A program made the position numbers and the translations under genes. Source: Advenella kashmirensis WT001 (GTDB lineage Bacteria > Pseudomonadota > Gammaproteobacteria > Burkholderiales > Burkholderiaceae_B). Taken from it: a DNA stretch of 64,000 nt. Numbering within the stretch: the first letter of the stretch is position 1; every line of letters starts with the position of its first letter. Shown here piece by piece: positions 34,934-42,903 of this stretch. The stretch covers positions 868,001-932,000 of the forward strand of contig NC_017964.1 of the NCBI RefSeq assembly GCF_000219915.2, given 5' to 3'. The notes below the pieces were generated by a model, which saw only the letters and a program-made list of their open reading frames with translations, was not told the origin of the DNA and ran no database searches.

Positions 34934-35509
34934 ATGAATCAGTACCCGGACCGCCTTCCTCCCCTTGCACCAGAAACCTGGGGCGAAGATCAGAAACAGT
35001 ACGCCCAGGAAATTATCAACGGCCCGCGTGGCGGGCTTTTGTCGCCTTTCATTCCCTTGATGCGCAGTCCTGAGCTGATGGCTCATGCCAGTCGCATGGG
35101 CGAGTACCTGCGGTATCGCAGTGCCCTGGGGCAGCGTCTGTCGGAGCTGGCAATACTTATCACCTCGCGACAGTGGTCCCAGCAGGTGGAGTGGGCGATT
35201 CATGCGCCGATCGCGCTGCGTGAAGGCGTATCTGAACAAACCATCGAGGCAATACGCGAAGGCCGCAAGCCCGAGGGGTTGCCTGAAGACGAGGCGATAC
35301 TTTATGCATTCTCGACTGAGCTGTTTCGCAATCAGTCGGTATGCGATCGCACCTATGAGCGCGCGCTGCAGCAGTTTGGCGAGCAGGGGGTGATGGATCT
35401 GGTCGGCATCAATGGCTATTATTCGTTGCTTTCCATGGTCATGAATGTGGCCAGAACACCGGTTCCCGTGTCTTCGGCCAAGCCGCTGGTAACCATGCCC
35501 GCCGTGTAG
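34934..35509 (+). CDS. Carboxymuconolactone decarboxylase-like (AhpD fold) protein
   Basis: A 191-residue all-helical protein of the CMD family: GGLLSPFIPLMRSPELMAHA, LSELAILITSRQWSQQVEWAIHAPIALREGVSEQTIEAI. I see no AhpD-type CxxC redox pair, so a peroxidase role is unlikely. A decarboxylase, lactone-opening or similar role is possible. Start ATG 34934 (MNQYPDRLPPLAP) is chosen. It lies 164 bp after ttdB and converges on the LacI gene that controls the RuBisCO-like cluster, so its allegiance is uncertain. Confidence 0.75.
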   Translation: MNQYPDRLPPLAPETWGEDQKQYAQEIINGPRGGLLSPFIPLMRSPELMAHASRMGEYLRYRSALGQRLSELAILITSRQWSQQVEWAIHAPIALREGVSEQTIEAIREGRKPEGLPEDEAILYAFSTELFRNQSVCDRTYERALQQFGEQGVMDLVGINGYYSLLSMVMNVARTPVPVSSAKPLVTMPAV

Positions 35510-35523
35510 CGTTGTCGGGCAGG

Positions 35524-35551
35524 TCCATTTATTGCAGGCGCAATAAATGGA
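35524..35551. terminator. Bidirectional hairpin between convergent CMD-like and lacI-type genes
   Basis: A perfect 11-bp inverted repeat (TCCATTTATTG / CAATAAATGGA) with loop CAGGCG begins 14 bp after the CMD-like stop. It lies 36 bp beyond the corrected stop of the regulator. Its position supports a short regulator that ends at 35588 rather than reading on through the hairpin. Confidence 0.6.
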
Positions 35552-40277: not shown

Positions 40278-41548
40278 GCGATACTGTCGTACAGGCCCGA
40301 TATGTGGTGGAAACGCCATTTGAGCCGGCCAAAGTGGCGGAAATTATGGCTGGTGAACAGTCTTGCGGAACCTTTACCCGCGTGGCTGGCGAAACCGATG
40401 AGTTGCGAGAGCGAGCCCGCGCCACGGTAACCGCGGTGACCGAGTTGCCCGCAGGCGAGGCGCCCAGTTTGCCCAATGCCTGGCTCGAAGGCCGACAGGT
40501 AAACGGTCCATGGCGTCGCGCCCGGATTGATATTTCATTTCCGATAGCTAATTTTGGCGCTAACCTGGCCACGCTGGCTGCCACGGTCTCGGGCAATCTT
40601 TACGACTTGGGTGAAGTGACCGGATTGCGTCTTGAGTCGCTGACGCTGCCCGCTTCATTTCGTATGCGGTTTGCCTTGCCCGGCCTGGGCATTGCCGGCA
40701 CCCGTGCCAGTATTGGTGTGGCTGCGGGCGCCATGGTCGGCACGATTATCAAGCCGAATGTCGGCATGAGTTCGGCGCAGACGGCAGCACTGGTAAAAAC
40801 CTTGTGCGAGGCCGGTGTTGATTTCATCAAGGATGATGAAGTGTGCGCCAATCCGGACCATGCACCACTGGCCCAGCGCGTACCTGCGGTGATGGCCGTT
40901 ATTCGCGAGCATGCACAGCGCACTGGTAAAAAGGTCATGATGGCATTCAATATCAGCGATGATCTGGATTCCATGCGACGCCATGCAGACCTGGTGGCGC
41001 AGGAAGAAGGCACTTGTGTGATGGCCAGTCTCAATTATTGCGGCTTCTCGGCCATTGAAAGCCTCAGAAAGAGTACGCCACTTGCTATCCATGGTCATCG
41101 TAATGGCTTTGGAGCCGTCTCGCGGCACCCGTTGCTTGGCATGGCATATCAGCCATATCAGACGATGTGGCGCCTGGCAGGGGTGGATCACATGCATGTG
41201 CATGGCCTTCAGGGGAAATTCTCGCAGCCAGATAGTGAGGTAGTAAGTGCAGCCGCCGACTCTCTGGCGCGCATGTCCGACACGGTCGATGATCGGGTGT
41301 TACCTGTGTTTTCGTCGGGCCAGTGGGCAGGTACGGTCCCGGTGACCTGGCAATCGATTCAAAGTCAGGATCTGCTCTTCATGTCTGGCGGCGGCATTCT
41401 GGCCCACCCCATGGGGCCGGCGGCCGGTGTGGTCAGCCTTCGGCAGGCCTGGGCAGCGCAGCAGGAAGGCGCCAGGCTGGAAGATTACGCTTGCAATATG
41501 CCCGAGCTGAAGGCGGCCCTCTCGTTTTTTGGCGACAAGCAATCATGA
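40274..41548 (+). CDS. RuBisCO-like protein (form IV family), OiaX/OiaT-like
   Basis: A 424-residue RuBisCO large-subunit homologue. Active-site positions are largely kept: Lys160 (IIKPNVG), the carbamylation motif DFIKDDE with Lys186, Asp188 and Glu189, HGHRNGFGA, Lys315 (GLQGKF, loop-6 position) and the phosphate-binding SGGG at 371-374. The surrounding sequence is unlike true CO2-fixing RuBisCO and no small subunit or phosphoribulokinase is present. Next to a DUF1537 kinase it resembles 3-oxo-isoapionate-4-phosphate decarboxylase (OiaX) or transcarboxylase/hydrolase (OiaT). Overlaps both neighbours by 4 bp. Intact. Confidence 0.85.
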   Translation: MSDTVVQARYVVETPFEPAKVAEIMAGEQSCGTFTRVAGETDELRERARATVTAVTELPAGEAPSLPNAWLEGRQVNGPWRRARIDISFPIANFGANLATLAATVSGNLYDLGEVTGLRLESLTLPASFRMRFALPGLGIAGTRASIGVAAGAMVGTIIKPNVGMSSAQTAALVKTLCEAGVDFIKDDEVCANPDHAPLAQRVPAVMAVIREHAQRTGKKVMMAFNISDDLDSMRRHADLVAQEEGTCVMASLNYCGFSAIESLRKSTPLAIHGHRNGFGAVSRHPLLGMAYQPYQTMWRLAGVDHMHVHGLQGKFSQPDSEVVSAAADSLARMSDTVDDRVLPVFSSGQWAGTVPVTWQSIQSQDLLFMSGGGILAHPMGPAAGVVSLRQAWAAQQEGARLEDYACNMPELKAALSFFGDKQS

Positions 41549-42903
41549 GCCTGAGGTTTGGCTGGTACGGCGATGATTTCACGGGGGCGACCGATACGCT
41601 GGCCGTTGCGGCACGAGCCAATCTTCGTAGCATGCTGTTTCTGGACGTGCCCACCGAAGCGCAATTGGCGCGTATCGGCCCATTGCAGGCAATCGGAATA
41701 GCAGGGACGGCGCGCGGCATGAGTCCGCAACAGATGCAGTCCTGTTTGCCGAAGATCGGGCGCTTTTTCCGGGATCAGCAGGTGCCGGTGCTGCATTATA
41801 AATGTTGTTCCACCTTTGATAGCGCCGCACACACGGGCAGCCTGGGGGCTGCAGTCAATATCCTGGGCGACTACGTGCAAGCGCCGTTTGCATTGTTTGT
41901 AGGTGGCCAGCCCGATATTGGTCGTTACTGCTGTTTTGGCAATCTTTTTGCTGCGGCCGGGGATTGCGGCCAGGTGCATCGTATCGACCGGCATCCAACC
42001 ATGCAATGCCATCCGGTGACACCAATGCATGAAGCTGACTTGAGATTGCATCTGCAATCGCAGGCAATGGCAGATGTCATCAGCATTCCTTATACGGCAT
42101 ATCAACAGCAACCGGCCGTGCTGGATGCGCATGTTGATAGGGCCATCCACCGCTGTGCTAGCACCCAGGGAAAAATGGATACCGGTGTCCTGTTCGATGT
42201 TTCGGACAGCACGCAGCTTGCAAGCGTGGGACGGCAGATCCTGCGTATCGCCCATAATCACGGTACAGCCTTGGTTGTCGGCTCAAGTGTTGTGCTGCAG
42301 GCAGTGGCCGCGGCAGAAAATACCGGTGAACGCAGCCATCGCGCTTTGGGCCACGCGATTGGCGACAGGCAACCGACACACAGTGGTCCGACGTTTGTAT
42401 TGGCGGGAAGCCTGTCTCCGGTGACCGCTGCGCAGGTGGGGGCCGCCAGCGGATATGTAAAATTGCCTTTGCAGGCGCGCCTGCTGTTGAATGACGCTGC
42501 CTACCGGGCCGCACAATGCCAGCACATTTGTGATCAGCTGAGTGCTAATCGACATGTTCTGGCCTATGTCGACCAGCAAAACGGGCGCGACAACGCAATA
42601 CAATCAGCGGATCTGGCGGCGGCAACAGCCCGCTTTGTATATTCGACGCTGCAATTGTTGGCAGAGCAGGGTATACACCTGGGGCAGCTTGGCATTGCAG
42701 GTGGAGATACATCCAGTCAGGCGATTGCGCAACTGGATCTGTGGGCATTGTCATATTCAGGTGTACTATCGCCCGGCGTAACTGTTTGTTCAATGCATAG
42801 TGACAATCCCGCATTGGATGGCCTGACCGTCATGTTAAAGGGTGGGCAGATGGGAAGTGAGGATATTTTCGATAAATTGCTGCAAGTGCCGGTGACCCGC
42901 TAA
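41545..42903 (+). CDS. DUF1537-family four-carbon acid sugar kinase-like protein, OiaK/OtnK-like
   Basis: A 452-residue kinase of the DUF1537 family. The N-terminal substrate domain has WYGDDFTGATDTLAVAARA (residues 7-25), HYKCCSTFDSAAHTGSLG and VGGQPDIGRYCCFGN. The C-terminal nucleotide domain has GIAGGDTSSQAIAQL and VMLKGGQMGSEDIFDKLL. Members phosphorylate 3-oxo-tetronates (OtnK) or 3-oxo-isoapionate (OiaK). Its ATG overlaps the RuBisCO-like stop (ATGA), so the kinase probably supplies that enzyme's phosphorylated substrate. Intact. Confidence 0.87.
   Translation: MSLRFGWYGDDFTGATDTLAVAARANLRSMLFLDVPTEAQLARIGPLQAIGIAGTARGMSPQQMQSCLPKIGRFFRDQQVPVLHYKCCSTFDSAAHTGSLGAAVNILGDYVQAPFALFVGGQPDIGRYCCFGNLFAAAGDCGQVHRIDRHPTMQCHPVTPMHEADLRLHLQSQAMADVISIPYTAYQQQPAVLDAHVDRAIHRCASTQGKMDTGVLFDVSDSTQLASVGRQILRIAHNHGTALVVGSSVVLQAVAAAENTGERSHRALGHAIGDRQPTHSGPTFVLAGSLSPVTAAQVGAASGYVKLPLQARLLLNDAAYRAAQCQHICDQLSANRHVLAYVDQQNGRDNAIQSADLAAATARFVYSTLQLLAEQGIHLGQLGIAGGDTSSQAIAQLDLWALSYSGVLSPGVTVCSMHSDNPALDGLTVMLKGGQMGSEDIFDKLLQVPVTR

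What the first reader, a model, noticed from the sequence alone, without database searches (positions are those of the whole stretch)
34934..42903. Candidate undescribed sugar-acid pathway: RuBisCO-like protein + DUF1537 kinase + VOC protein + TRAP under LacI
VOC, RuBisCO-like and kinase genes are joined by two 4-bp ATGA overlaps, and a LacI regulator and TRAP importer complete a self-contained unit. Known oxo-isoapionate pathways (OiaK kinase with OiaX or OiaT RuBisCO-like enzyme) use an apionate oxidoisomerase or dehydrogenase to make the 3-oxo acid. None is seen here, so either the oxo acid is imported directly or the VOC protein performs an unassigned isomerisation. RuBisCO-like active-site residues Lys160, Lys186/Asp188/Glu189 and Lys315 are kept, implying real carboxyl chemistry.
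Basis: partly seen in the sequence, partly recalled or inferred. Interest (0 to 1): 0.85.

Follow-up and report, generated by a model that had tools for sequence, protein, structure and literature searches.

The report
RuBisCO-like sugar-acid pathway with VOC isomerase
A small, self-contained gene set that recurs in many other bacteria seems to break down an unknown sugar acid with a relative of the CO2-fixing enzyme RuBisCO, and a small metal-site protein stands where the known pathway has an oxidising enzyme.

Summary
The genes are as described: divergent LacI, DctP, fused DctQM, then VOC, RuBisCO-like protein (RLP) and DUF1537 kinase joined by ATGA overlaps. Here DctQM carries two single-base gaps against a congener, so the importer is not intact as read. 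The unit is conserved: 119 of 119 fetched loci with an RLP at least 55% identical have VOC and kinase adjacent, none with ApnO in the stretch. In 398 same-phylum genomes the VOC orthologue lies beside an RLP in 8 of 8; in another family, 8 of 11. VOC-linked RLPs form one clade apart from OiaX and ApnO-linked RLPs, with orphan structure 3NWR inside. ApnO's family (PF16896, identity recalled) is absent from this genome, five congeners and 40 of 50 other carriers. A CATCA-N5-CATCA repeat marks the LacI/transporter gap. In one genome (L155) RLP and kinase are of the ApnO-linked type while LacI, TRAP and VOC stay, and ApnO's family is absent. Best reading: VOC supplies the 3-oxo acid (3-oxo-isoapionate or close analogue) that kinase and RLP then break down. 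New variant of a known kind; substrate and VOC reaction unproven.

The parts
36637..36650 (+). operator-like copy 1 (CATCA-N5-CATCA type direct repeat), just upstream of the likely LacI start (Met at 36633)
   Evidence: exact ATCAAAAAMCATCA occurs twice in the own genome, here and at 36711; window positions
36711..36724 (+). operator-like copy 2, upstream of dctP
   Evidence: loose repeat in 84 of 97 cassette LacI/transporter gaps, control mean 1.3, max 4
35419..36633 (-). LacI-family regulator, divergent (ORF opens at 36651; likely start 36633; its 3' end runs past the stop of congener L146)
   Evidence: PF00356, PF13407; congener alignment; alternative Met positions
36745..37764 (+). TRAP solute receptor DctP
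   Evidence: PF03480; 63% identical to 4OAN
37766..39665 (+). fused TRAP permease DctQM, broken by two frameshifts (about 38673 and 39121) in this assembly
   Evidence: no stop in the five congener loci
39738..40277 (+). VOC-family protein, presumed metal-dependent isomerase; Q10, E69, H94, E142 conserved
   Evidence: PF13669; at least 97% conserved in 87 sequences
40274..41548 (+). RuBisCO-like protein (VOC-linked clade, clade of 3NWR)
   Evidence: PF00016/PF02788; PDB match; residues; tree
41545..42903 (+). four-carbon acid sugar kinase family (DUF1537), OiaK-like
   Evidence: PF07005, PF17042; OiaK model 270 bits, cut-off 700; tree

Best explanation
A LacI-controlled catabolic cassette for a branched (or isomeric) sugar acid. 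Inferred steps: a TRAP importer (in some relatives a polar-amino-acid-type ABC importer) brings in an already oxidised acid; the VOC protein, with a Gln-Glu-His-Glu metal site, isomerises it to a 2-hydroxy-3-oxo acid, 3-oxo-isoapionate or a close analogue, doing without redox what ApnO does by oxidation plus hydroxymethyl migration (recalled); the kinase phosphorylates it; the RLP cleaves the phosphorylated 3-oxo acid to central metabolites (OiaT-like, for example 3-phosphoglycerate plus a C2 acid), which would explain why no further enzyme recurs. In a minority variant an SDR beside the importer would supply the oxidation, so that SDR + VOC together equal ApnO. Shown: gene content, conservation, clade structure, active-site residues, operator-like repeat, absence of PF16896, and the module swap in L155. 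Inferred: substrate, VOC reaction, RLP products.
For: 119 of 119 loci with an RLP of at least 55% identity and at least 700 bases upstream have VOC and kinase adjacent, 0 have ApnO in the fetched stretch; of 20 RLPs under 55%, 0 have VOC and 15 have ApnO (4 of those 20 were found through an ApnO search, and 11 of the other 16 have ApnO; L155 was found later and is not in this count). 398 same-phylum genomes: VOC orthologue (67% or more) in 8, each beside an RLP; 7 of 7 RLPs of 57% or more are beside VOC. One RLP clade 97/100, one kinase clade 100/100. PF16896 absent from the own genome, five congeners and G466 and from 40 of 50 other cassette genomes. L155 (G466): LacI 60%, receptor 74%, VOC 75%, permease 65% to that of L103, repeat kept, but RLP and kinase group with ApnO-linked ones. 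P. graminis has both a VOC cassette (L079) and an ApnO locus with a separate RLP (L096). No downstream enzyme recurs widely in flanks. RuBisCO-type catalytic residues kept; N162, H310, G314 mark the clade. SDR variant in L045, L055, L061, L103, L187.
Against: No ligand, substrate or product is known. The L155 swap is a single case, and its RLP ends about 20 residues early. Three of 11 VOC loci of that family (60-70% VOC) have no RLP in the stretch; two of these have an OiaK-type kinase and a DeoC/LacD-type aldolase, so VOC's product may not be RLP-specific. N162/H310/G314 differ from ApnO-linked RLPs, which may mean another substrate. 10 of 50 and 2 of 13 cassette genomes do have PF16896 elsewhere. 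Four VOC relatives outside the cassette (35-45%) were looked at; three lie in loci with Rieske/CoA-type genes and one with SDR and MaoC/AMP-binding genes, which says nothing of sugar acids. The 4OAN receptor (2-acetolactate ligand by recall) is not in a VOC cassette in the genome with a 100% match.
Confidence: 0.45

Rival explanations
1. VOC is an OtnI-like 2-oxo/3-oxo isomerase (enediol proton shift) for a linear sugar acid; kinase and RLP then phosphorylate and decarboxylate or enolise it. Same layout, different substrate class from apionate.
For: Gln-Glu-His-Glu site; the kinase also matches the 3-oxo-tetronate kinase model, 149 bits; clade-specific RLP residues N162/H310; DeoC/LacD-type aldolase and no RLP in two VOC loci.
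Against: L155 pairs VOC with ApnO-type RLP and kinase; a linear 3-oxo acid would not need an RLP, since OtnC-type decarboxylases do that job (recalled).
Confidence: 0.25
2. The 3-oxo acid itself is imported; VOC only epimerises, opens a lactone or deals with a side product, and kinase + RLP are the whole pathway.
For: No oxidoreductase recurs in most cassettes; 4OAN, a 63% identical receptor, is recalled to have been modelled with 2-acetolactate, a branched 2-hydroxy-3-oxo acid; a review passage lists 2-acetolactate among TRAP ligands found by that project.
Against: VOC is as constant as RLP and kinase (119 of 119), more than a helper would need; 4OAN is of another locus type.
Confidence: 0.2
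3. An ordinary D-apiose pathway (OiaK + OiaX/OiaT) with ApnO elsewhere in the genome.
For: Kinase and RLP match the OiaK and OiaX models best.
Against: Scores far below cut-offs, separate clades, no PF16896 in this genome or in 40 of 50 others; P. graminis keeps both systems.
Confidence: 0.05
4. In this strain the unit is decaying or unused, because the importer gene is broken.
For: Two single-base gaps in DctQM and a lost LacI stop relative to L146; the fumarase beta gene nearby also looks broken, by eye.
Against: RLP (103 synonymous, 15 non-synonymous codon differences) and VOC (30 and 4) look constrained against congener L146; scattered single-base gaps also fit assembly error.
Confidence: 0.15

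Closest known systems
D-apionate / 3-oxo-isoapionate pathway (ApnO, OiaK, OiaT or OiaX; Carter et al. 2018, not held; its RLP reactions named in a passage of PMC6302742, OiaX and OiaK in NCBIfam; the role of ApnO is recalled)
   Same: DUF1537-family kinase plus RLP of the same branch, TRAP or ABC import, RuBisCO catalytic residues kept
   Different: No ApnO; VOC protein constant instead; RLP and kinase form their own clades; below OiaX and OiaK cut-offs; N162/H310/G314
OtnI-OtnK-OtnC 3-oxo-tetronate pathway (Zhang et al. 2016, recalled; only its title seen, in reference lists)
   Same: isomerase, then DUF1537 kinase, then C-C cleavage or decarboxylation
   Different: VOC in place of OtnI, RLP in place of OtnC
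3NWR, 'a rubisco-like protein' (Burkholderia fungorum by recall), function unassigned as far as searched
   Same: lies in the VOC-linked clade; 97% identical to the cassette RLP of L059
   Different: no report of a function was found; one search asked for two of four terms, so a paper with the code alone would not have shown, and the code-bearing search was not repeated
LsrK-LsrG-LsrF (AI-2 catabolism, recalled)
   Same: import, kinase, isomerase, LsrF-type aldolase, as in L190/L191
   Different: our unit uses an RLP, and its isomerase is a VOC protein

Membership tests
OiaX, 3-oxo-isoapionate-4-phosphate decarboxylase (NF042437) | curated cut-off of 700 bits | tested here: not met
   413.6 bits; an annotated OiaX (L010) scores 761.4
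OiaX, 3-oxo-isoapionate-4-phosphate decarboxylase (NF042437) | falls in the OiaX clade | tested here: not met
   separate starred clades; H308 kept where the two OiaX have Gln
OiaT, transcarboxylase/hydrolase | clusters with characterised OiaT | tested here: inconclusive
   no OiaT model appeared in the NCBIfam scan and no characterised sequence was at hand; separate from ApnO-linked RLPs, which I take as the likely OiaT set
OiaK (NF042436) | curated cut-off of 700 bits | tested here: not met
   270.1 bits; but the four ApnO-linked kinases tested also fail at 428-465 bits, so the cut-off is narrow
ApnO-dependent 3-oxo-isoapionate pathway | an ApnO-type gene (PF16896; this identity is recalled) in the genome | tested here: not met
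   none in G000; the 14 control genomes ring 0, but the same search rings in 10 of 50 other genomes
ApnO-dependent 3-oxo-isoapionate pathway | acts on 3-oxo-isoapionate 4-phosphate | not testable with these tools
   needs enzyme assay
RuBisCO superfamily, RuBisCO-like protein | RuBisCO_large domains with metal/carbamate site residues | tested here: met
   PF00016 and PF02788; K160, K186, D188, E189, K315 invariant in 87
true RuBisCO (form I-III) | Lys at the RuBisCO K177 position (numbering recalled) | tested here: not met
   Asn162 in 87 of 87; Lys in the genome's other RuBisCO, L001
methylmalonyl-CoA epimerase (TIGR03081) | curated cut-off of 114.95 bits | tested here: not met
   25.3 bits
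3-oxo-tetronate kinase OtnK (NF043035) | curated cut-off of 350 bits | tested here: not met
   149.4 bits

The most novel reading that the evidence does not exclude
The VOC protein is a stand-alone, redox-free, metal-dependent alpha-ketol (hydroxymethyl-migrating) isomerase that makes 3-oxo-isoapionate from its 2-oxo isomer, so that SDR + VOC, or VOC with an imported oxo acid, replaces the bifunctional ApnO; this would be a new reaction for the VOC superfamily and a new entry into RuBisCO-like carboxyl chemistry.
Probability: 0.25. Interest if true: 0.8.

Novelty: new variant of a known kind. Interest (0 to 1): 0.62.

Why it matters
It gives a defined three-enzyme setting to a RuBisCO-like clade that includes a crystal structure without a function known to me, predicts a new VOC reaction, and offers natural tests: transporter swaps, an RLP/kinase swap, an SDR add-on and a regulator change that goes with loss of the operator-like repeat. 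About 2% of sampled same-phylum genomes carry the VOC orthologue (8 of 398, our own included), so a common, unnamed sugar acid may be its substrate.

Tried and rejected
ApnO elsewhere in the genome: no PF16896. Ligand by homology to 4OAN: in the genome with a 100% match, the 16 kb around the receptor hold no VOC, RLP or kinase match, so its ligand is not transferred; the tools show the entry title cut before any ligand, and 2-acetolactate is recalled, with one review passage that lists it as a TRAP ligand. Stop codons reported inside RLP matches of 11 genomes: 9 of the 11 were read and no stop lies inside the aligned gene; the other two were not read. Recurrent accessory enzymes in flanks of the 119 loci: the commonest are Bug-type receptors (17 loci) and an SDR region (8); no other metabolic gene stood out by eye (not family-scanned, and 19 of the 119 loci have short flanks). 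Palindromic operator: none consistent by eye in 12 gaps; a direct repeat was found instead. Kinase codon comparison is unusable (unaligned indels). Literature: the listings of searches show no paper on a VOC-RLP-kinase unit; Carter 2018, Zhang 2016 and the receptor-screen paper are not held, so a mention there is not excluded.
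Full report
WHAT IS THERE. The fused DctQM gene shows two single-base gaps against congener locus L146 (about 38673 and 39121), and LacI runs past that congener's stop; the permease match has no stop in any of five congener loci. Whether this is assembly error or decay cannot be told. RLP and VOC look constrained against L146 (RLP 103 synonymous and 15 non-synonymous codon differences, VOC 30 and 4).

CONSERVATION. With plasmid and own-family loci, 119 of 119 loci with an RLP at least 55% identical and at least 700 bases upstream have VOC and kinase adjacent; none has ApnO in the fetched stretch. 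The 119 include five Advenella places fetched twice, so 114 distinct, and some species may occur in two collections; flanks range from about 1.5 to 10 kb. The 20 RLPs below 55% have no VOC; 15 have ApnO, 4 of which were found through an ApnO search. In 398 same-phylum genomes, our own included, VOC at 67% or more occurs in 8, each beside an RLP; the 11 more distant VOC places (47-53%) are not beside any RLP found at E <= 1e-90; of 27 such RLP places, 7 of 7 at 57% or more and 1 of 20 below 55% (G466) are beside VOC. In the own family 58 of 200 genomes have an RLP at E <= 1e-60, 54 of 60 places at 60% or more; five same-genus genomes have it and four listed ones do not.

VARIANTS. The core stays while the importer changes: TRAP with fused DctQM in most of the 80; another TRAP (L006 type); a four-gene polar-amino-acid-type ABC importer in L030-L034, L062, L063, L066, L070; a receptor with no permease match in the locus in L029, L074, L075, L078. 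An SDR (76-77% to that of L103) lies between LacI and receptor in L045, L055, L061 and L187, as in L103 itself; more distant SDRs (54-59%) lie in L082, L083, L086. In nine own-family loci (L131-L139) no LacI match was found and a gene that looks LysR-type by eye recurs instead.

REGULATION. Of 97 cassette gaps between LacI and the next gene, 84 hold an ATCA-N6/7-ATCA repeat, mostly at 10-base spacing, against a mean of 1.3 (max 4, 20 draws) in random stretches of the same loci; consensus CATCAAAAAcCATCA over 84 sites; strict CATCA-N5-CATCA in 68 of 97, and 137 strict copies in all 1.86 Mb of those loci. In the own genome exact ATCAAAAAMCATCA occurs twice, both here; six more places match with one mismatch, one in the backward control. 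The nine LacI-less loci have no strict copy and one loose copy away from the cassette promoter (L135); eleven ApnO-type or other RLP loci have no strict copy. So the motif goes with this LacI; binding is inferred, and a direct repeat is unusual for the family (recalled).

RELATION TO APNO PATHWAYS. That PF16896 genes are ApnO is recalled; the records call those beside OiaX or other RLPs 'phosphogluconate dehydrogenase C-terminal domain-containing protein'. PF16896 is absent from the own genome, five congeners and G466, and present in 2 of the 13 genomes of that search (G631, G548); it is absent from 40 of 50 other cassette genomes (50 of the 80 loci were sent). P. graminis C4D1M has both: a cassette (L079) and an ApnO locus (L096) with its own RLP, 48% identical to ours. 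VOC-linked RLPs form one clade (35 of 49 rows, chosen from 104, 97/100; RuBisCO outgroup branch very long) apart from ApnO-linked and OiaX ones; so do the kinases (17 of 27 rows, 100/100). Our RLP scores 413.6 against OiaX's cut-off of 700 and the kinase 270 against OiaK's 700, but the ApnO-linked RLPs tested other than the annotated OiaX L010 (414-474) and all four ApnO-linked kinases tested (428-465) also fail, so this excludes OiaX more firmly than the reaction class.

ACTIVE SITES. K160, K186, D188, E189, H275, R276, H308, K315, S347, G349 and G372-G374 are invariant in 87 VOC-linked RLPs; N162, H310 and G314 are fixed there while the eight ApnO-linked RLPs have S (8), N (8) and N (7) or S (1). 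VOC keeps Q10, E69, H94 and E142 in at least 97% of 87, also seen in the six more distant VOC proteins aligned, a pattern like human glyoxalase I (recalled); H55-N56-S57 is conserved in the cassette and not in those six.

THE SWAP. In L155 (G466, one 7.15 Mb contig; its family holds Rhodopseudomonas and Bradyrhizobium by inference from a 100% 4OAN match and a shared contig length) LacI (60%), receptor (74%), VOC (75%) and permease (65% to that of L103) are cassette-type, with the repeat, but the RLP (51% to ours, 69% to L011, residues S162, N310, N314) and kinase (33% to ours, 53% to L108) group with ApnO-linked ones. G466 has no PF16896. The simplest reading is that both RLP/kinase types work on the same or a very similar intermediate and that VOC stands where ApnO would. 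It is one case, and that RLP ends about 20 residues early. Against a strict rule: of 11 of 198 genomes of that family with the VOC orthologue at E <= 1e-70, 7 have a VOC-type RLP, 1 the swap, and 3 no RLP in the stretch; two of these three have an OiaK-type kinase (447-450 bits, cut-off 700), a DeoR regulator and a DeoC/LacD-type aldolase.

MECHANISM. The chemistry of ApnO, OiaK and OiaT/OiaX is recalled and partly confirmed by a passage of PMC6302742 (RLPs that decarboxylate, or transcarboxylate and hydrolyse, 3-oxo-isoapionate 4-phosphate). From it I infer: imported oxidised acid, VOC isomerisation, phosphorylation, RLP cleavage to products that need no further enzyme, since none recurs widely. 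Papers were seen only as listings and found passages; the primary papers are not held.

VERDICT. A real, conserved pathway cassette for which I found no name in the searches listed; new variant of a known kind.

Noticed in passing
window 36637-36724: The LacI-linked operator-like motif is a 10-base-period direct repeat (CATCAAAAAcCATCA) rather than a palindrome; no strict copy in nine loci without this LacI.
   Followed up: yes
L190 and L191: VOC (60-61%) and TRAP with an OiaK-type kinase, DeoR regulator and a DeoC/LacD (LsrF-like) aldolase and no RLP in the stretch.
   Followed up: partly
L189: LacI-receptor-VOC without RLP or kinase in the 16 kb fetched; an MFS exporter-like gene follows.
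   Followed up: no
window 33330-34677: Fumarase-type alpha gene followed by a beta gene that by eye looks frameshifted; with DctQM and LacI this suggests scattered single-base gaps in this assembly.
   Followed up: no
   Followed up: partly
G000:C1:2759774 (L001) and G000:C1:3939206 (L003): The genome also has a second RuBisCO-family gene, apparently a true large subunit, and a second DUF1537-family kinase, both away from this cassette.
   Followed up: no
L157 6356-7760, L106 8001-9310: More distant VOC relatives (47-53%) lie directly beside SDR genes (the one in L106 by eye) with no RLP in the stretch, echoing the SDR + VOC pairing.
   Followed up: no
L030-L034, L062, L063, L066, L070: A polar-amino-acid-type ABC importer replaces the TRAP importer in front of the same VOC-RLP-kinase core.
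   Followed up: partly
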